A stretch of 41,652 nucleotides of DNA from a virus. The stretch lies in IMG/VR virus record IMGVR_UViG_3300009379_000029, positions 1 to 41,652 of that record. One strand, given 5' to 3'. This document shows positions 3,561-41,652 of this stretch, piece by piece. Under the pieces are notes generated by a model. The model was given only the letters and a program-made list of their open reading frames with translations. It did no database searches and was not told where the DNA came from. A program made the position numbers and the translations under genes. Numbering within the stretch: position 1 is the first letter of the stretch; each line of letters starts with the position of its first letter.

Positions 3561-3992
3561 TTGGCGTTTCCTCACCGGTATTATTACCCGACCGCTAAAC
3601 AACGGGCTGCAATGGCCCCCTACCGAAGTTTGTTCGAGAAGCACCTTGCTGAGAACCTTGCCCACCGCAAGATCCCCTTTGAATACGAGACCGTAAGCCT
3701 GGCGTACATGGTCCCTGCTGAGACCAAGCGATATACCCCTGACTTCGTTGTCATGACCAATGGGGGACGGACCATCCTGGTCGAAGCAAAGGGTCTGTTC
3801 AGTGCAGATGATCGGAAGAAGGCCCTGTGGGTACGTGATTGTAACCCCGATGCTGACGTCCGGTTCGTCTTCCAGAACCCAGCTCTCAAGATTAACCCTA
3901 ACGCAAAACAGTCCTGTGCTCAGTGGGCAGAACGCAACGGCTTCAAGTGGGCCGACAAGTTCATACCCGAAGAGTGGCTCCAGGAACGATAG
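3561..3992 (+). CDS. Endonuclease I, Holliday-junction resolvase (T7 gp3-like)
   Basis: Cuts branched DNA and helps degrade host DNA and resolve replication intermediates. The 143-residue product carries the family signature: a leading Glu region (FEYETVSLAYMVP), then YTPDFVV, then the VEAKG strand followed by DDRKK, matching the active-site Asp, Glu and Lys of T7 gp3. T7 gp3 is 149 residues. Starts at TTG 3561, two bases after the SSB stop; coupling to SSB translation is likely because no strong SD is present. A stable hairpin follows directly. Confidence 0.93.
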   Translation: MAFPHRYYYPTAKQRAAMAPYRSLFEKHLAENLAHRKIPFEYETVSLAYMVPAETKRYTPDFVVMTNGGRTILVEAKGLFSADDRKKALWVRDCNPDADVRFVFQNPALKINPNAKQSCAQWAERNGFKWADKFIPEEWLQER

Positions 3993-3995
3993 TGC

Positions 3996-4037
3996 CGGAA
4001 GGACCAGGGAGCTACCCCCCTACCTCTGGTCCTTCCG
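3996..4037. terminator. Strong hairpin between convergent genes, probable terminator
   Basis: A perfect 12-bp stem (CGGAAGGACCAG at 3996-4007, CTGGTCCTTCCG at 4026-4037) with an 18-base loop follows the endonuclease stop and precedes the 3' end of the only minus-strand gene. A T/A-rich stretch follows on the plus side. Its position between convergent genes fits a bidirectional terminator, although no clean T-run is present on either side. Confidence 0.6.
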
Positions 4038-4055
4038 TTCATATTATATTCACTT

Positions 4056-4217
4056 TTAACCCAAGTGCTTGAGCAGCCAGGGCGCAACAAATGGATAAAC
4101 AAGCAGCCAGCCAAGGCTAAAGGTGATTGCCGCACCCCTATCTTCCCTCTGTCCAAGCACCAGAACACCCATGATCAAGCCTACAATTTCTCCAAGAATC
4201 AACCATCCATTATTCAT
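4056..4217 (-). CDS. Minus-strand two-helix membrane protein, unknown
   Basis: This is the only gene I can support on the minus strand. It encodes 53 residues from ATG (4217) to TAA (4056). Two hydrophobic segments are visible, GWLILGEIVGLIMGVLVLG (about 4-22) and ITFSLGWLLVYPFVAPWLL (about 31-49), joined by a charged turn (QREDRG). A GGAGG lies eight bases upstream of the start and a sigma70-like promoter with a perfect TTGACA lies upstream at 4241-4270. The convergent hairpin at 3996-4037 would end its transcript. Independent control and opposite orientation in a one-direction phage genome suggest expression from the prophage, for example a superinfection-exclusion type protein. That role is inference; I do not recognise the family. 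Too short and too close to other frames to be certain. Confidence 0.65.
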   Translation of the reverse strand: MNNGWLILGEIVGLIMGVLVLGQREDRGAAITFSLGWLLVYPFVAPWLLKHLG

Positions 4218-4240
4218 TCCTAAGCCCTCCATAAATGGGG

Positions 4241-4270
4241 ACCATACATACAGGAGACCACCTATGTCAA
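4241..4270 (-). promoter_or_regulatory. Sigma70-like promoter for the minus-strand membrane gene
   Basis: On the minus strand, TTGACA (plus-strand TGTCAA, 4265-4270) is followed after 18 bases by TATGGT (plus-strand ACCATA, 4241-4246). The -35 is a perfect match and the -10 matches four of six. It reads toward the ATG at 4217 and overlaps the start codon of the plus-strand gene at 4264. Confidence 0.5.
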
Positions 4271-4545
4271 ACCTTGCACGACGTCATACCGAGACCATCA
4301 ACAAGTATCACAAACGACTCTCCGACGAATGTAAGCGCACCAAGGAGCACCTGAAGGGTAAGCACATCTGGATCAGTGCTGCATTGATCCCCACCCGTGA
4401 CAAGAATGGTCAGCCTATCATCGGTCAGTGGCAAAGGGTTGTCATTGGTGGAACCTACCGCCGTCCCATCCCCAAAACCACTGGTCCTGCATACAAGGCC
4501 TGGGGAACGATCACCCGCAGGTTCCTGGGGAGGGCAGCAGCATGA
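4264..4545 (+). CDS. Small basic protein, unknown
   Basis: 93 residues, rich in Arg, Lys and Thr (MSNLARRHTETINKYHKRLSDE...GTYRRPIPKTTG), probably cytoplasmic. The open frame extends farther upstream, but ATG 4264 has CAGGAG seven bases ahead and the upstream part would overlap the minus-strand gene, so 4264 is chosen. Its stop overlaps the next start by four bases (ATGA), indicating translational coupling. No domain recognised. Confidence 0.7.
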   Translation: MSNLARRHTETINKYHKRLSDECKRTKEHLKGKHIWISAALIPTRDKNGQPIIGQWQRVVIGGTYRRPIPKTTGPAYKAWGTITRRFLGRAAA

Positions 4546-4856
4546 TGGGGTGGATCAAAAGAAAACTTGGTATCACCCACCTGGAGGCTGAGATCAATAT
4601 GTTGAAATGTGAGAAGGGGTACCGGGAGGGGTACCGGAGGGTCTGGGAGAGGAACCGGGCAAAGGACCGGGAGTCGAGCCGTTCCGAGTCCGTACTCAAC
4701 AAGGAGCGGGAGAAAAGACACCGCCAGGAGATCTGGCAACTGGAGGAGAGGGTTGGCGCATTGAAGGAGACCCAGGATGCCCTGCTTAACTACCTGAAGC
4801 TTGAACCTCTTGAGGTCCCGGCGGCACCTACCCGTCTGACCATGCAGGAGAAGTGA
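4542..4856 (+). CDS. Coiled-coil protein, unknown
   Basis: 104 residues, very rich in Arg, Glu and Lys. From about residue 10 to 90 it reads as one long charged helix (LEAEINMLKCEKGY...EREKRHRQEIWQLEERVGALKE), so a coiled coil is likely. Starts in the ATGA overlap with the previous gene; an ATG doublet (ATGATG) makes the exact first Met uncertain by one codon. Function unknown; it lies among replication genes upstream of primase-helicase. Confidence 0.7.
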   Translation: MMGWIKRKLGITHLEAEINMLKCEKGYREGYRRVWERNRAKDRESSRSESVLNKEREKRHRQEIWQLEERVGALKETQDALLNYLKLEPLEVPAAPTRLTMQEK

Positions 4857-4890: not shown

Positions 4891-5622
4891 ATGAAAAGAT
4901 CAAACCAGCATAACATCGTTCTTCCTGCATCTACCATTAACAACATCTGGGGCATCTACCGTGCCGCTTATCTGAATAACCGGGAGGTTCAGAGCACCTT
5001 CATCAAGGGTGCCGGTAAGGATACCCAGTACAACGCCGTCAGGTTTGCCACCACCCTTCGTACCACCCCCAAGAGACTGCGCCGGGTGCTGTGTCTGGCA
5101 GTGAACCGAGGTTTCATGACGGTTGGGCGTAATGCCACCGGTCACCACACCTTCAAGATGACCACCAAGGGAATCGAGCGTGCCACCCTGTGTGCTCCCT
5201 GCGAGATCCCCGGCCTCGATGACTACAAGCTCTCCACGGTACCTACCATCAAGGTCACTGAGACAACCACCAAGACTCTCAAGATGCCTACCATCCGAGA
5301 AGCCGCAAAGCGTGGCTACTGCTGCCCTGGCCGTCGGCTCACCAACTGTGATGGGCATTGTGATACCTGCCTGTTGGACCCCACGAACTTCCATGAGGTC
5401 CTTCCCCTGGCTACCATCACCAAGGAGGTCACCCTGACCCGTCATCTGGTACTGCCGGAGGTTCCCGTTTCGACCCACCTGAATCGTAGCCTTTGCGCGA
5501 TCTTCTTTGGTGACCGTACTGGCCCCCACTGCAACACTGCCAACTGTGACGAGTGTGCCTTCGGTGCGTCCAACTCGGCCACTACCATTCGTACGCTGAT
5601 GGAGGGCCATGTCGGAGTATAA
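4891..5622 (+). CDS. Cysteine-rich protein upstream of primase-helicase, unknown
   Basis: 243 residues. The N-terminal 100 or so residues resemble a winged-helix arrangement (TTLRTTPKRLRRVLCLAVNRGFMTVGRNATGHHTFKMT reads as helix, helix, beta wing), which is a weak inference. The C-terminal half holds two Cys clusters, CCPGRRLTNCDGHCDTC and CNTANCDEC, that could each bind zinc. ATG 4891 has CAAGGAG nine to ten bases upstream. The 3' end overlaps the primase-helicase start by 14 bases. I do not recognise the family; DNA or RNA binding is plausible from the Cys clusters and the context. Confidence 0.8.
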   Translation: MKRSNQHNIVLPASTINNIWGIYRAAYLNNREVQSTFIKGAGKDTQYNAVRFATTLRTTPKRLRRVLCLAVNRGFMTVGRNATGHHTFKMTTKGIERATLCAPCEIPGLDDYKLSTVPTIKVTETTTKTLKMPTIREAAKRGYCCPGRRLTNCDGHCDTCLLDPTNFHEVLPLATITKEVTLTRHLVLPEVPVSTHLNRSLCAIFFGDRTGPHCNTANCDECAFGASNSATTIRTLMEGHVGV

Positions 5623-15888: not shown

Positions 15889-15913
15889 ATTAGGTTCCCT
15901 CCATAGTAGGGCA
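15889..15913 (+). promoter_or_regulatory. Putative phage RNA polymerase promoter, structural genes
   Basis: AGGTTCCCTCCATAGTAGGG lies here; the identical 20 bases recur at 34861. The end (CATAGTAGGG plus purines) is organised like T7 promoters. It lies in the first true gap after the replication block and upstream of portal, scaffold and capsid. Confidence 0.75.
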
Positions 15914-17942: not shown

Positions 17943-18767
17943 TTGGAATCACAGCATATTAACCCTGAAGATCAACCCAACTTCAATACCAGCAACACAG
18001 ACACTGGGAGCCACCAGGAGACGGACACCCAGTCCCCCACCCCTGGCTCCCCTGAGTACCTGGGCGAGATGGCAAAGCGTGGTGGTGCAACGGACGAAGA
18101 GATCACAATGATCGTGGAGTCCGCACGTAAAGCTGATCCTAACTACGTACCGGAGGACAACACTACTGAAGGCTCTGAAGAGGGCACTGATGGAGGTGAC
18201 AACAGTGGCAATACTGATGACTCGGATACTGGTGACACACCTGAGGGTCTGAGCCTTGCATCCCTGAGCCAGGAGGTCATCAGCAACGAAGGTAAACTCA
18301 CCGATGCAACCATGCAGAAGCTTGTGGATATGGGCTTCGCTCAGGCTGACGTTGAGCAGTACGTCACTGACCAGTATCAGGCCGGTGAAACCATTCGTGA
18401 GCAGTCCCTTACGAACCTTTACGATTCGGTCGGAGGGGAGGCCAAGTACAACACAATGATCGAATGGGCAGGAGCCAACCTCAGCCCTGAAGATATTACC
18501 AAGTTCAACACTGATGTTGCTGCCAGCGATATGGCAACCGTCAAGGCTGCAATGAAAGGTCTCAGCAACCAGTTCACCCTTGCCAATGGGAGGCCTCCCG
18601 CACGTCGCATTCAGGGAGGTAATGGTCAGACCACCATAGCTGTGGATGCCTATCGGTCCAAGGCCCAGGTGATTACTGACATGGGAAGTACCCAGTACGC
18701 CAAAGACCCGGCCTTCCGTGAGCAGGTTATGCAGAAGCTCAGTCGTTCCCCCAACATCAAAATGTAG
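17943..18767 (+). CDS. Scaffolding / capsid assembly protein (T7 gp9-like)
   Basis: Guides capsid assembly and leaves before maturation. 274 residues, strongly acidic in the first 100 with Thr/Ser/Gly/Asp repeats (TGSHQETDTQS, GTDGGDNSGNTDDSDTGD), a helical middle and a basic end (AFREQVMQKLSRSPNIKM), as in T7-like scaffolds. TTG start at 17943 with GAAGGA about eight bases upstream. It lies between portal and capsid as expected. Confidence 0.9.
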   Translation: MESQHINPEDQPNFNTSNTDTGSHQETDTQSPTPGSPEYLGEMAKRGGATDEEITMIVESARKADPNYVPEDNTTEGSEEGTDGGDNSGNTDDSDTGDTPEGLSLASLSQEVISNEGKLTDATMQKLVDMGFAQADVEQYVTDQYQAGETIREQSLTNLYDSVGGEAKYNTMIEWAGANLSPEDITKFNTDVAASDMATVKAAMKGLSNQFTLANGRPPARRIQGGNGQTTIAVDAYRSKAQVITDMGSTQYAKDPAFREQVMQKLSRSPNIKM

Positions 18768-18860
18768 CACCCAAGGTGGGCATTAGTGCGCCTGATTGTC
18801 CACCGACCATCAACACAAATCACATTTACATTAACTTATCTTTGAAAGGAATTACCCAAC
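18768..18860 (+). other. Leader between scaffold and capsid genes
   Basis: 93 bases without a gene. It contains a small GCACCCAAGGTGGGC dyad at its start and AAAGGAAT before the capsid TTG. I see no promoter of the CATAGTAGG type here, unlike T7, which has a strong promoter before gene 10. Confidence 0.5.
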
Positions 18861-19838
18861 TTGTCAAACGCAACTCCTACCTTCGGTGGTGCCCAGAACA
18901 ATGCAGCCTCAACTATTGAACAGCAGCGCCAGCTCTACCTCAAGCTCTATGCAGGTGAGACCATTACGGCCTTCGAGAAGCACACCGTCATGCTGGACAA
19001 GCACACCGTTCGTACCATCCAGGCTGGTAAATCTGCTCAGTTCCCCGTGATTGGCCAGATGCCCGACGCTGAGTACCACACCCCTGGCGAGGAGATCACT
19101 GGTCAGAATGTGCCCCACTCTGAGGTCATCATCCCTGTGGATAAGCTCTTGATCAGTCACATCTTTATCGACGACCTGGACGACGCAATGCGTCACTTTG
19201 ATGTCCGAGGCAAGTACGCCAACATGCAGGGCCAGAAACTGTCTCAGACCTTTGATAAACACACCATGCTCAATGGCATCATTGGTGCCCGTGATGGGGC
19301 CAACGTCCAGGGTGGTGAAGGTGGCCTGACCGTTAACAACGCAAACCTTACCAACAAGGATGATGACCTGTTCCTGAAGGCATGGCTTGAGTGTTTCCGT
19401 ACCGCCAAGACCAACTTTGACAACAAGTTCGTAACCGGCACTCGATTCGCCATCGTGAAACCTGACACGTACAACCGTCTGGCTACCCTGGTCAACTCTG
19501 TGGGTTTCAGCCTCATGAACCGTGACCACGGTGTGACTGCTGGTGACTTCTCTCAGGCTACTTTGCCTCCCATTGCTGGGTTCCAGGTGATCAGCTCCCC
19601 CATGCTCCCTGTGGGTGACTTCACCACTGGTGAGTTCCACAAGGTCAACACCTTCACCACCCAGTGCCTGTGCTTCACCGAAGATCTGGTGGGTACCGTC
19701 AAGCTCATGGACATCAGTCTCCAGAGCCAGTGGGACATCCGTCGTCAGGGTACCCTCATGGTAGCTCGTTACGCCATGGGCCACAGACCTCTTCAGTCTG
19801 CTTGTGGTGTAGAGCTTCGTACCGCTGACCCCTCATAA
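18861..19838 (+). CDS. Major capsid protein (T7 gp10A-like)
   Basis: Forms the icosahedral shell (HK97 fold). 325 residues (T7 gp10A: 345). Expected features include an N-terminal arm, ETITAFEKHTVMLDKHTVRTIQ with the gp10-type T.F.....M..H..RTI pattern, the YHTPGEEITG turn, and DLDDAMRHFDVRGKYANMQGQKL. The start is TTG 18861 after AAAGGAAT; no ATG is nearby, which is unusual for the most abundant virion protein. A strong terminator follows. Confidence 0.94.
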   Translation: MSNATPTFGGAQNNAASTIEQQRQLYLKLYAGETITAFEKHTVMLDKHTVRTIQAGKSAQFPVIGQMPDAEYHTPGEEITGQNVPHSEVIIPVDKLLISHIFIDDLDDAMRHFDVRGKYANMQGQKLSQTFDKHTMLNGIIGARDGANVQGGEGGLTVNNANLTNKDDDLFLKAWLECFRTAKTNFDNKFVTGTRFAIVKPDTYNRLATLVNSVGFSLMNRDHGVTAGDFSQATLPPIAGFQVISSPMLPVGDFTTGEFHKVNTFTTQCLCFTEDLVGTVKLMDISLQSQWDIRRQGTLMVARYAMGHRPLQSACGVELRTADPS

Positions 19839-19849
19839 TCATTAACCTC

Positions 19850-19891
19850 AAGGGAGAACTCATAGTTAATCACTGTGGGTTCTCCCTTTTT
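19850..19891 (+). terminator. Intrinsic terminator after capsid gene
   Basis: AAGGGAGAAC (19850-19859) pairs perfectly with GTTCTCCCTT (19879-19888) and ends in T5 (19887-19891). Same position as T7 terminator T-phi downstream of gene 10. It would limit the dose of tail and internal proteins relative to capsid. Confidence 0.88.
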
Positions 19892-32847: not shown

Positions 32848-32871
32848 CCACCCAGGGCCGACCCTGGGTGG
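32848..32871 (+). other. Very stable RNA hairpin upstream of the 32887 gene
   Basis: CCACCCAGGG (32848-32857) and CCCTGGGTGG (32862-32871) form a perfect 10-bp stem with a four-base loop. No T-run follows; the next SD (AAGGAG) begins seven bases later. It is likely a processing or mRNA-stabilising element (for example an RNase III target) rather than a terminator. Confidence 0.65.
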
Positions 32872-32886
32872 ACCAGAAAGGAGATC

Positions 32887-33081
32887 ATGAAAGTACTATT
32901 TGACTATGAACGTGAGGGGTTGATCATTGGTGTCACCGGCTCGACCTGCTGGACCAAGAATGGTAAACCCCTGATGTTCTACGCAAGACGTGGACGAATT
33001 GCTGGTGGACACTTAGTCCAAGTCATTCTGTTCTGGATCTTGGCGATTACTATTGCTTACGAAGGGAAGTCTGATAAGTAA
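32887..33081 (+). CDS. Small membrane-anchored protein between the terminase genes
   Basis: 64 residues. Soluble N-terminal half (MKVLFDYEREGLIIGVTG...), then a hydrophobic helix LVQVILFWILAITIAY near the C-terminus and a short charged tail. T7 has Rz-type genes 18.5/18.7 here, but this product has no recognisable Rz features (no long periplasmic helix), so the role is open. ATG 32887 with AAAGGAG upstream. Confidence 0.7.
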   Translation: MKVLFDYEREGLIIGVTGSTCWTKNGKPLMFYARRGRIAGGHLVQVILFWILAITIAYEGKSDK

Positions 33082-34837
33082 AGTCTCAATTGGGGGCCTG
33101 AAAAAGGGCTATTCCAATCCGATTGACGGAAGTATCATCACCGGGGACCCCATCCTGGATGACTTCCGTAACTTCCTCTACATGGTGTGGAAGCACCTGG
33201 ACCTCCCCGATCCGACACCCCTCCAGTACGAGATCGCCCTTTATCTACAGGGTGGTCCTAAGCGACAAGTCATTGAGGCATTCCGTGGGTGTGGTAAGTC
33301 GTGGATTACAGCGGCTTTCGTTCTGTGGTGCCTGTTGCGCGATCCTCAGCGAAAGTTTCTTGTCGTCAGTGCGAGTAAACAGAGGGCCGACGCCTTCAGT
33401 ATCTTCACACTGCGACTGATCAGAGAGATGCCTATCCTCAAGCACCTGATCCCCAGGACTGAACAACGAGAGTCCATGGTCGAGTTTGATGTAGGCCCGG
33501 CAAGTGCCCACCAAGCGGCAAGTGTCCGGTCGGCTGGTATTGAGTCCCAGATTACGGGTGGGCGTGCTCACCATATCATTGCTGATGACGTTGAGGTCCC
33601 GAAGAACAGTGCCACCCAGGCCCTCCGGGAGAAGCTCCTCAAGTCGGTCAGTGAGTTTGAAGCAATCATCATTCCTGAAGGTAAGCCCCGAATTACATTC
33701 CTGGGGACCCCACAGACTGAAGAGTCAATCTACAACCTCATGAACGCCAAGGGATACGACGTCCGTATCTGGCCTGCACGGTATCCAGGAGAGGCGAAAA
33801 TAGCCGCTTATCGAGGTCACCTTGCTCCTACTATTCAGAAGCTCCTGAGTGCCAATATGGGGTTGGCTGGTGAGCCTGTGGACCCCCGACGATTCGATCA
33901 ATTGGAACTGCTGGAACGCGAGGCATCCTATGGTCGTTCAGGCTTTGCGCTTCAGTTCATGCTTGACACATCATTGAGTGATGCAGAGAAGTATCCATTG
34001 AAGACTGGTGACCTGATCGTAACGAACATCAACAGTGCGGTTGCACCCATTGGTATCCAGTATGGTAGTGGACCCCAGCAGATCACAAGGGACATCCCGA
34101 ACGTGGGCTTCAGTGGTGACAAGTGGTGCCGCCCTCTGTTTGCCGACACTACGCTGGCTCCCTATGAGGGAATCGTCATGGCTGTTGACCCTTCTGGTCG
34201 TGGTTCTGATGAGACTACCTATGCCGTCGTTGCCCAGCTCCACGGTAACCTGTGGGTCCTGGATATTGGGGGATTCGCTGGTGGCTACGAGGATGAGACC
34301 CTGGAGGCCCTGTGCCGAATCACCAAGCGTTTCTCCGTCAAGGCTGTGATCGTGGAAAGCAACTTTGGTGATGGCATGTTTACCCGCCTGTTGCAGCCCC
34401 ATATGAGGCGTATTCACGGGGTCTGTGCCATTGATGAAGTATCCCATAGTGTTCAGAAGGAGAAGCGAATTATCGACGTTCTGGAGCCTCTGATGAACCA
34501 GCACCGTCTGGTTATGGACGAGGAAATCATCCGTCGTGATATTCGGTTGAACGTCCATGTGGAGAACCGTCTGCACTACAGTCTGTTCTACCAGATGACC
34601 CGTTTGTGTAGGGCGCGTGGTGCCCTCAAACATGATGACCTTATTGATGCCCTGGCTATGGCTTGCACCTACTGGGTGGACGCAATGAGCCGGGACGAGG
34701 ATACTGCCATCAAGTCCCATCAAGCAGCAGCCCTTGCCGCAGAGCTGGAGAACCATCAGCGGAACCAATCTGGTCTATTTAATAGTGGACCTGTGAAGGC
34801 ACGCTGGGGTTATTCTGGGACGTTTACGGGGTTCTGA
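33074..34837 (+). CDS. terL: Large terminase subunit (T7 gp19-like), start uncertain
   Basis: Packages DNA with ATP hydrolysis and cuts concatemers. The ATPase Walker A is EAFRGCGKSWITAAF, with FLVVSASKQRADAFSIF and the Walker B IIADDVEVPKNSA; the nuclease half has VMAVDPSGRGSDETTYAV, VESNFGDGMF and LKHDDLIDALAMA. These blocks run parallel to T7 gp19 (586 residues). From ATA 33074 the product has 587 residues; ATA follows AAGGGA by six bases and overlaps the previous gene. The nearest conventional codon, TTG 33053, has no SD and adds seven residues. No ATG is available before the conserved core. Confidence 0.95.
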   Translation: MSKVSIGGLKKGYSNPIDGSIITGDPILDDFRNFLYMVWKHLDLPDPTPLQYEIALYLQGGPKRQVIEAFRGCGKSWITAAFVLWCLLRDPQRKFLVVSASKQRADAFSIFTLRLIREMPILKHLIPRTEQRESMVEFDVGPASAHQAASVRSAGIESQITGGRAHHIIADDVEVPKNSATQALREKLLKSVSEFEAIIIPEGKPRITFLGTPQTEESIYNLMNAKGYDVRIWPARYPGEAKIAAYRGHLAPTIQKLLSANMGLAGEPVDPRRFDQLELLEREASYGRSGFALQFMLDTSLSDAEKYPLKTGDLIVTNINSAVAPIGIQYGSGPQQITRDIPNVGFSGDKWCRPLFADTTLAPYEGIVMAVDPSGRGSDETTYAVVAQLHGNLWVLDIGGFAGGYEDETLEALCRITKRFSVKAVIVESNFGDGMFTRLLQPHMRRIHGVCAIDEVSHSVQKEKRIIDVLEPLMNQHRLVMDEEIIRRDIRLNVHVENRLHYSLFYQMTRLCRARGALKHDDLIDALAMACTYWVDAMSRDEDTAIKSHQAAALAAELENHQRNQSGLFNSGPVKARWGYSGTFTGF

Positions 34838-34860
34838 AAAGTGTAGGACATTCGGCCACA

Positions 34861-34888
34861 TATAGGTTCCCTCCATAGTAGGGGAGAG
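34861..34888 (+). promoter_or_regulatory. Putative phage RNA polymerase promoter at the genome right end
   Basis: AGGTTCCCTCCATAGTAGGG followed by GAGAG. The 20-base core is identical to the promoter at 15889. It lies 24 bases after the terminase stop, where T7 has phi-OR, and no gene follows it. A role in replication or packaging-linked transcription is likely. Confidence 0.75.
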
Positions 34889-34903
34889 TGAGCTGAGTGT
34901 CCC

Positions 34904-34989
34904 TACATTAGGTAGGTACTTTAGGTCCTACCTTGGGTCCTCCATCCTTATATACATAGGGTGGTACCTGGGGTAGGTACCTTAGGTCC
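34904..34989 (+). repeat. Iteron-like repeats of TACNTTAGGTCC
   Basis: Copies: TACATTAGGT at 34904, TACTTTAGGTCC at 34917-34928, TACCTTGGGTCC at 34929-34940 and TACCTTAGGTCC at 34978-34989. The same unit is repeated after the promoter at 15889. All are downstream of a phage promoter. Confidence 0.7.
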
Positions 34990-35461
34990 CCTCATAGTCC
35001 CTATATATAAGGTAGCCCCCTCCCACCTGTCTCCCCACCTGTACCAGTTTCGTAGAATCGTGCAGATACAACTCCGTTGACCTGCACCCCTGGTCCTCCC
35101 ATCTGACCCCACCCGTCGTAGAATCTCCTATTATCGTCCTCACGACCTTCCCATCCTCACGCATACCAGTAGTCCCATCACCTCACGATCGTCTTCATAC
35201 GGCCCGGATGGTCCCTCTATCCTGGAATGGTCTCCCAATGTTTTCATTGCGAAAATCTGAAGGGGTATCATTAGGAGGCTGACCTGACCCTCACCCCCCG
35301 TGGCCTTGGTGTTCGCGCTAATAGGATCGTGCGTTTTCCAAAAGTAATCAGATACTGTCTATCCATAGGCCAACTTTGAGCCGTAGGGACACCACCAAAC
35401 GTCACTACACCAGCTGACAACCTTGTGGTGTCAACATCGGTCGCTGGGTGGTCTATCCGTC

Positions 35462-35533
35462 GGTGCCACCAATGGTCGGTGCTGGGGTGCCACCAATGGT
35501 CGGTGCTGGGGTGCCACCAATGGTCGGTGCTGG
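35462..35533 (+). repeat. Three perfect 24-bp tandem repeats
   Basis: Unit GGTGCCACCAATGGTCGGTG plus CTGG, three exact copies (35462-35485, 35486-35509, 35510-35533). A degenerate copy lies just upstream (about 35426-35448). Each unit contains GGTGCCACC, a short dyad. Lies in the non-coding region beside terminase; could be protein-binding sites for packaging or replication. Confidence 0.9.
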
Positions 35534-35966
35534 GGTGGTGTCTCCTGTCCTCTTGGTTGTTAACGTCGGGGTATCTGTTCGGTTGGTTGGCACTGGTGGT
35601 GGTCTCTACGGTCGCGGGACCTTGCGTCACTACACGTTCCTCTATCACTCCTGACGGCCTCTTGTGGTCACTATCTGTGATTTTTCTTGTGAGCTGGTTG
35701 TGCTGTTATTATGGGGGTTTGTCCTCTGTTGGCTGGTGGTGGTCAATCTTTTGTAATCTTTTCTGTTGACTGGTGGGGGTGGTCCGTGTAGCTTCAATCC
35801 ATCAACGGGGCAGCAACAACGCTCCATCGGGAACGGGCACTGAGCCCAACCCCTTAGATCTTTGACAAATTGAAGTGAGTGCCAAGTAAGCACCGACGAC
35901 CACAGCGGGTGGTTGTCACGACGACGAACGGCACAAAAGGTAACACTCTGTTTCTTCCAAACAAAT

Positions 35967-36010
35967 AGCGGGACCACAGGACGGCCAAATGGTCAACCTG
36001 TGGTCCCGCT
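35967..36010. terminator. Perfect 14-bp inverted repeat, terminator-like
   Basis: AGCGGGACCACAGG (35967-35980) and CCTGTGGTCCCGCT (35997-36010) with a 16-base loop, followed by CCTTTCATGTTT. It could stop transcription entering or leaving the early region, or be a processing site. The tail is not a clean T-run. Confidence 0.6.
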
Positions 36011-36127
36011 CCTTTCATGTTTATGGTCGAATAGGATCACTACAGCCACCCCACCACGATTAGGAACACTCCGAAAGGGTGGTAAACGGTAGCCGTGGTG
36101 GTCTTCTCCGACTATTAACTAAGTACT

Positions 36128-36139
36128 GGCCTTCGGGCC
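36128..36139 (+). other. UUCG-tetraloop hairpin before the first early gene
   Basis: GGCCTTCGGGCC forms a GGCC/GGCC stem closed as C(UUCG)G, with T and A extending it. It lies just upstream of the SD ATGGAGGAAC. The same element precedes the gene at 37734. Likely a 5' mRNA stabiliser. Confidence 0.7.
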
Positions 36140-36157
36140 AACATGGAGGAACAACCT

Positions 36158-38865: not shown

Positions 38866-39141
38866 TTGAAACGACTGTTAATTGGAATGGTGTTGGTCAT
38901 ACTACTGACGGGATGTACCCACAGCACTCTAATACCATTATTTTCCGGCAATTGTGTGGATCGTGCAGTTCAGATTCGCCAGCATCTCAAGGAGGACGGA
39001 TACGAAGCTGAGATCGTCATCGGAACAGGTAGGCTGCATGGTAAGAAGGTAGGTCACGCCTGGATTAAGTACCGGAAGCCAGGGAACTCTGAGTGGATTC
39101 GGTACACAAATTGGATCGCTAAACGAGAGGACATTTTATGA
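38866..39141 (+). CDS. Small lipoprotein with Cys-His (transglutaminase-like) motifs
   Basis: 91 residues from TTG 38866, which has AGGAGG upstream. A basic start, hydrophobic helix and lipobox (KRLLIGMVLVILLTGC) predict lipid attachment at Cys17, placing the protein in the envelope. The mature part has NCVDRAVQIRQHLKEDGYEA followed by GHAWIKY and EWIRYTNW: the order Cys, His, then an acidic or polar residue resembles transglutaminase-like / papain-fold proteins, though it is very short. It could be a lysogenic-conversion or superinfection-exclusion factor (inference). A longer in-frame reading from 38683 would overlap the previous gene and destroy the signal peptide. Confidence 0.75.
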   Translation: MKRLLIGMVLVILLTGCTHSTLIPLFSGNCVDRAVQIRQHLKEDGYEAEIVIGTGRLHGKKVGHAWIKYRKPGNSEWIRYTNWIAKREDIL

Positions 39142-40510: not shown

Positions 40511-41652
40511 CGACGGGCTTGGTTCAGTGGTACAACGGTGATGGTGAGGCCACAGGCGACATAAAGATGCAGTTCCGACATCGAGGTAAGCGGGTTGCCC
40601 GTACCACTGGTTCGAGGGACATCAAGAGAGCCAAGGTGGTCATGGAGCAGGTCCGGCTGGAACTGGATGCAGACGCCGGGGTTACCATGGAGCGATTATC
40701 CACCGGGAACTACACACGCCTAAGTGAGGCCGTTGAGGTCTATTATAACGTTAACTGGAAGGGGACGCTGCATGGGGATGACTCCAAGGTCAAGCTGGAG
40801 ATCATCATCAACCATCTTCACAATCCCTACTGTCACAGCATTAATAGCATGATTGTGAAACGCCTACGCCGCTCCCTTGCCACTGAGGACATTGGGTCCC
40901 ATGATGAGCCTAAGTTCCGGGCACCCACCACAGTGAATCGTTACATTGCAGCCCTCAAGACGGTAATGATTGATCTCCAGAAGCAAGGCTACATTGATCG
41001 GCTCCCTGAGTGGGGGATGGTCAGCGAGAAGCCTTATCGAAGAGACCGAGTGATAACCGATCCTGAGTTAGGGGACATCATCAAGTACTGCCACAGGCCT
41101 GTCTATCGCTATGGTCGGACCAATGGTAAACGTGCTGTCCTCCTCGACAAGGTGACACGAAAGCCAATCATTAACCAACGGGCCACCGAGATGCGGCAAC
41201 GGGTGGGAGACCTTTTTCTGGTCCTTCGTAAGACAGGTATGAGAATAGGGGAGGCCACCTCGATCGCCTTTGGCCGTCACATTAAGATGGACCGTCGGGC
41301 CATAACGATCACCGCCGACATAGCCAAGGGGAAGTCCATCCGAACCATTCCAATGGCTGACGTTGTGTATGAGATCCTAAGCAGCATCACGCCTGGACCC
41401 GATGGTCGAGCCTTCCCATTCACCAAGGACTACGCTGACAAGGTGTGGCGACAAGCTCGGAGCCTCTTAGGGATCGAGGACAAGAACTTTGTGCCCCATG
41501 CCTTACGTCATACCCTTGCTACCAACCTCTTGGAGAAGGGGGTCCCTGTTGGTAAGGTCCAGGCCCTGTTGGGTCATGAGGATCTCAGCACCACGATGAT
41601 CTATACGCACCTCACTGCCGATGATATGGGGGGTGTGCTGAATGCAAGTTAG
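40489..41652 (+). CDS. int: Tyrosine recombinase integrase
   Basis: Integrates and excises phage DNA by site-specific recombination. 387 residues. The catalytic set is complete: Arg252 (TGMRIGEA), His337 and Arg340 (HALRHTLA), His363 ([10 protein letters not shown]) and the nucleophile Tyr372 (MIYTHL). The N-terminal 190 residues hold the arm- and core-binding part ([15 protein letters not shown] resembles a SAM-like domain). ATG 40489 overlaps the MarR-like gene. It lies immediately upstream of the RNA polymerase if the genome is circular, as in other integrase-bearing T7-like phages. I see no tRNA-like att site nearby. Confidence 0.95.

What the first reader, a model, noticed from the sequence alone, without database searches (positions are those of the whole stretch)
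4056..4270. A lone antisense membrane-protein gene with its own promoter and convergent terminator
Seen: a 53-codon minus-strand frame with good SD, two hydrophobic helices, a perfect TTGACA with 18-base spacing to TATGGT, and a strong hairpin between it and the convergent endonuclease gene. All other genes run on the plus strand. Inference: this is a prophage-expressed cargo gene, possibly superinfection exclusion, independent of the phage polymerase cascade.
Basis: partly seen in the sequence, partly recalled or inferred. Interest (0 to 1): 0.75.

Follow-up and report, generated by a model that had tools for sequence, protein, structure and literature searches.

The report
Lone reversed membrane-protein gene in phage
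A T7-like phage that can probably sit dormant in bacterial chromosomes seems to carry one tiny membrane-protein gene pointing the opposite way from its other genes, with its own bacterial-type promoter; this looks like an ordinary optional cargo gene, and its function is unproven.

Summary
A 53-codon minus-strand ORF (4217-4056) fills the 271-bp gap between the endonuclease I gene and the next plus gene. It has GGAGG 8 nt before ATG, two predicted transmembrane helices, and TTGACA-18-TATGGT upstream. In 400 shuffles of 13 intergenic gaps, ORF + two helices + SD appeared in 0.25% of sets, and with a promoter in none. AlphaFold2 gives a helical hairpin (pLDDT 80.8); the mirror plus-strand frame does not (67.4).

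Two details need correcting. The 12-bp hairpin (3996-4037) is a plus-strand phage feature: it has no U-tract on the minus side, and a sister phage has a hairpin at the same place without the ORF. The -35 box overlaps the start codon of the plus gene at 4264.

The nearest relative is syntenic genome-wide but lacks the ORF and the whole block up to the primase. 0 of 15 relatives with the endonuclease carry such an ORF there. No homologue was found anywhere searched.

Best reading: a moron-like cargo gene in a variable cassette, readable by host RNA polymerase in a lysogen. Superinfection exclusion is plausible but untested. Expression is unproven, and codon usage is neutral. New member of a known kind.

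The parts
4056..4217 (-). 53-codon ORF, predicted two-helix inner-membrane hairpin protein (helices residues 3-23 and 27-52, loop QREDRG between)
4226..4230 (-). Shine-Dalgarno GGAGG, 8 nt from ATG
4265..4270 (-). -35 hexamer TTGACA (overlaps start codon of plus gene at 4264)
   Evidence: sequence
4241..4246 (-). -10 hexamer TATGGT, 18-bp spacer
3996..4037 (.). 12-bp perfect stem hairpin between endonuclease and the ORF; read here as a plus-strand phage terminator, shared as a convergent boundary
3561..3992 (+). endonuclease I (T7 gp3-like), convergent neighbour
   Evidence: PF05367 E 8.7e-38
4264..4545 (+). 93-aa ORF of unknown family, divergent neighbour, absent from the sister phage
4542..4856 (+). 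104-aa ORF of unknown family, part of the same variable block
4891..5622 (+). 243-aa ORF of unknown family, part of the same variable block

Best explanation
A moron-like accessory gene carried by a temperate T7-like phage. Shown: a small minus-strand ORF with SD, two predicted membrane helices and a sigma-70-like promoter sits alone, convergent to the endonuclease gene, inside a block that is replaced or absent in relatives. Inferred: in a lysogen the phage RNA polymerase is silent, so the plus-strand genes are off, while host RNA polymerase reads this gene from its own promoter; transcription runs towards a phage hairpin that stops the plus-strand endonuclease transcript. The product would insert in the inner membrane as a helical hairpin and change the lysogen. 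The likeliest single role, by analogy only, is hindering DNA entry by other phages.
For: Conjunction of ORF, SD, two helices and promoter far beyond shuffles (0 of 5000; 0 of 400 sets). Only one other promoter-like site as good in the window, both strands. Helical hairpin predicted at pLDDT 80.8 without an alignment against 67.4 and one short helix for the mirror plus frame. Sister phage G001 (IMGVR_UViG_3300005589_000752) matches along the whole genome but goes from endonuclease to the next gene in 77 bp, without the ORF. Integrase, MarR-like and HTH genes present. Precedent for prophage accessory genes antisense to lytic genes with their own promoter: STMMW_20121 of prophage ST64B (PMC7067206, passages).
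Against: No homologue in any collection searched, so no evolutionary proof of coding. Codon usage neutral: 0.03 bits per codon against 0.2-0.4 for most genes, about equal to the mirror plus frame, though several genes of the lysogeny end also score near zero or below. -10 box is only 4 of 6. No U-tract after the hairpin on the minus strand. The -35 box may exist because ATGTCAA starts the plus gene. Lysogeny of this record is inferred; no host flanks are present.
Confidence: 0.6

Rival explanations
1. A real gene that makes a small membrane protein acting in the phage's own lytic cycle or in host takeover (for example a holin-like or early membrane protein), not a lysogen cargo gene.
For: Small membrane genes occur in T7-like phages; Pasto's annotation lists several short predicted membrane proteins. 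A host promoter would also fire just after DNA entry.
Against: Those listed in Pasto lie on the plus strand; opposite orientation would work against the plus-strand phage transcription. The sister phage and the relatives lack it.
Confidence: 0.15
2. A non-coding antisense RNA: the promoter makes a transcript that reads through the hairpin and silences the endonuclease or SSB mRNA; the ORF is incidental.
For: No minus-side U-tract, so read-through into the endonuclease gene is possible. Antisense transcripts without coding sequence were reported in LUZ100 (PMC10134795, passages), and an antisense RNA gives superinfection exclusion in BTP1 (PMC7067206, passages).
Against: SD plus a two-helix ORF would then be coincidence, seen in 1 of 400 shuffled sets. 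No Rfam family above threshold.
Confidence: 0.12
3. No gene: a chance open frame, with a promoter-like string caused by the start of the plus gene.
For: An ORF of at least 50 aa in such a gap arises in 22% of shuffles. Neutral codon usage, no conservation.
Against: The conjunction with SD, two helices and promoter is rare even after allowing for 13 gaps and two strands.
Confidence: 0.13

Closest known systems
Moron / prophage accessory loci (lambdoid phages; e.g. STMMW_20121 in ST64B; lambda bor, position recalled)
   Same: Extra gene absent from close relatives, own sigma-70-type promoter, antisense to lytic genes, boundary hairpin
   Different: T7-like phage with its own RNA polymerase; hairpin belongs to the plus strand; expression not shown here
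HK97 gp15 superinfection exclusion protein (cited in PMC10883804, passages; size and helices recalled)
   Same: Prophage-encoded moron that blocks DNA injection; recalled as a small membrane protein
   Different: No sequence match in any search; function untested
P22 SieA (PMC10883804, passages)
   Same: Prophage-expressed inner-membrane protein
   Different: SieA is 162-164 aa with three helices; this is 53 aa with two
Rhizobium phage vB_RleA_TRX32-1 reverse CDS 18515-19384
   Same: Lone reverse-strand gene in a T7-like phage induced from a lysogen
   Different: 289 aa, beside the capsid gene, no confident family

Membership tests
Moron (accessory prophage gene; definition recalled) | Present in one phage, absent at the same place in a relative | tested here: met
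   Absent from sister G001 and 0 of 15 records with the endonuclease; but neighbouring plus genes are also absent from G001, so it is part of a larger variable block, not a clean single insertion
Moron (accessory prophage gene; definition recalled) | Own host-type promoter | tested here: met
   TTGACA-18-TATGGT by sequence only; activity not measured
Moron (accessory prophage gene; definition recalled) | Own factor-independent terminator | tested here: inconclusive
   Strong hairpin, no U-run on the minus side; plus-strand equivalent in the sister phage
Moron (accessory prophage gene; definition recalled) | Base composition unlike neighbours | tested here: inconclusive
   Gap G+C 0.49 against 0.53 overall, but most other gaps are 0.49-0.55
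Moron (accessory prophage gene; definition recalled) | Expressed in the lysogen | not testable with these tools
   No RNA data
Small membrane superinfection exclusion proteins | Sequence similarity to a known exclusion family | tested here: not met
   No match in Pfam, PHROGs, NCBIfam, PADLOC, PDB sequences
Small membrane superinfection exclusion proteins | Transmembrane segments | tested here: met
   Two hydrophobic helices
Small membrane superinfection exclusion proteins | Blocks other phages when expressed | not testable with these tools
   Needs an experiment

The most novel reading that the evidence does not exclude
A previously undescribed family of two-helix membrane proteins by which a temperate T7-like prophage, with its own polymerase switched off, uses the host polymerase to guard its host against DNA entry by related phages.
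Probability: 0.2. Interest if true: 0.55.

Novelty: new member of a known kind. Interest (0 to 1): 0.35.

Why it matters
[quoted passage not shown] A gene outside the phage polymerase cascade would be a marker of what such a prophage does for its host. As it stands this is one unverified orphan gene of a familiar type.

Tried and rejected
Homologue L001 from the first viral scan was rejected: 20 residues matching the antisense of a terminase gene. Weak tblastn phage hits (listed E 0.5 to 10) fall in unrelated genes. Genome hits at E 0.3-1 fall inside open frames of 145-881 aa and look like noise. The mirror plus-strand frame (4065-4223) as the real gene was rejected: GTG start, no SD of 5, no two helices, poor model. 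An Rfam hit to mir-185 lies far below its threshold. Codon usage did not decide. Scans with the endonuclease and RNA polymerase alone found no close relative; the terminase scan did. The scan with the neighbouring 243-aa gene gave no relative. The search of genomes by capsid found matches in 5 of 398 genomes at 34-42% identity, not followed. A first pass over the endonuclease loci read the minus-strand loci on the wrong strand and one locus from a wrong offset; repeated correctly.

Full report
WHAT THE RECORD IS. The window is a virus record of 41,652 bases: a T7-like genome with RNA polymerase at 1-2541, SSB, endonuclease I, primase-helicase, DNA polymerase, structural genes, terminase (594 aa, 33053-34837), an HTH gene (39305), a MarR-like gene (40166) and a tyrosine integrase ending at 41652 (some of these names rest on matches in the tblastn listings or on recall of T7 gene order). 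Its polymerase is at most about 33% identical to those of the best-listed annotated phages. The nearest relative found is IMGVR_UViG_3300005589_000752 (G001, 39,916 bp): terminase 67%, portal 71%, capsid 74% identical, same order, and cut at the same place between integrase and polymerase. That shared cut suggests, without proving, that both are prophages whose attachment site lies between these genes. LUZ100 has the same MarR-integrase-polymerase order, and its authors propose MarR control of the polymerase (PMC10134795, one section and passages).

THE OBSERVATION. An open frame of this length is not remarkable (22% of shuffles of the gap), but with SD and two hydrophobic stretches it occurred in 0 of 5000. 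To allow for looking elsewhere, 13 hand-chosen intergenic gaps were shuffled 400 times on both strands: two helices + SD in 1 set, two helices + promoter of 10/12 in none. In the real gaps only this one passes; a plus frame in 34838-36157 has two helices but no SD or promoter. The gap list leaves out gaps that I had filled with small plus ORFs. Among 35 minus-strand starts with SD of at least 5 and at least 40 aa, three have two hydrophobic stretches, and the other two lie antisense inside large plus genes.

THE PROTEIN. AlphaFold2 without an alignment gives helices 3-23 and 27-52, mean pLDDT 80.8, pTM 0.41. The mirror plus frame of the same DNA, 52 aa, gives 67.4, pTM 0.17 and one short helix. 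This is one control only, and hydrophobic sequences are easily predicted as helices.

THE HAIRPIN. Only four perfect stems of at least 10 bp with loops up to 25 exist in the window, against 0 to 2 in each of ten mononucleotide shuffles, and all four are intergenic: after the endonuclease, just after the capsid gene (19850-19888), before the large terminase (32848-32871), and at 35967-36010. They look like the phage's transcription punctuation; LUZ100 has a terminator just after its capsid gene. The sister phage has its own hairpin after the endonuclease with no reverse ORF there. So the hairpin is better read as a plus-strand terminator that the ORF faces, though its U-tract is poor on that side too (TTCATATT).

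RELATIVES. The endonuclease was sought in 39 records; 15 matched, two of them with the same first ORF downstream. In none of the 15 is there a minus-strand ORF with SD and two helices in the stretch searched after the endonuclease (up to 900 bases taken; ORFs ending within 500 considered). LUZ100, TRX32-1 and HTVC019P have an amidase or endolysin gene directly after the endonuclease; Pasto has a DNA-binding protein there. Here and in G001 that place holds unrelated genes; in G001 a Bro-N protein (E 1.7e-25). The stretch from endonuclease to primase is therefore a variable cassette. The ORF itself had no match in 30 related virus records, none at E 0.01 in 398 genomes of one phylum (that of a Dyella genome), only noise-level matches in 7 of 12 genomes with T7-like prophages, and none in Pfam, PHROGs, NCBIfam, PADLOC or PDB. 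The tools warn that an empty answer without a positive control shows little.

HOW COMMON. Of four whole annotations of integrase-bearing or lysogen-derived T7-like phages read, three (LUZ100, Pasto, HTVC019P) have no reverse CDS and one (TRX32-1, induced from a lysogen) has two. Part of two more (jiawei, S2B) showed only plus CDS. A lone reverse gene is thus rare but has a precedent.

MECHANISM AND VERDICT. The parts fit a gene read by host RNA polymerase while the phage polymerase is off. PMC7067206 (passages) describes antisense position as characteristic of prophage accessory loci, in a case with its own promoter. Exclusion of other phages is a role I recall for several small membrane morons, hence the leading guess, but nothing here tests it. 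I did not find a print report of this gene; the searches made were made, all limited to the open library, and none named this phage. The case is a plausible new member of a known kind.

Noticed in passing
window 15891-15911, 34863-34883, and weaker 2675-2691: Exact repeat TAGGTTCCCTCCATAGTAGGG ahead of the structural genes and after the terminase, with a 3-mismatch version of its core before SSB; possibly the phage RNA polymerase promoter (3 matches against 0.17 expected).
   Followed up: partly
window 19850-19888, 32848-32871, 35967-36010: Three further strong intergenic hairpins that look like transcription terminators.
   Followed up: partly
window 36644, 37009, 37639: Three copies of a paired repeat (GAGTGTTAATGACC.. 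and GGGGGTCTCATTAGACTATTAAC) between small genes; by eye they could form hairpins.
   Followed up: no
window 35449-35537: Three tandem 24-bp units in a 1.3-kb gene-poor stretch.
   Followed up: no
window 38866-39141: Small putative lipoprotein with a weak transglutaminase-like match (below cut-off) near the lysogeny genes, with atypical codon usage in the longer frame; a second cargo candidate.
   Followed up: no
window 1 and 41652; G001 ends: Both sister records are cut between integrase and RNA polymerase. If this is the attachment site, integration parts the polymerase from the upstream host promoter region, which could itself silence the prophage.
   Followed up: no
L217 18515-19384: Reverse-strand 289-aa gene beside the capsid gene of lysogen-induced Rhizobium phage TRX32-1, no confident family.
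   Followed up: no
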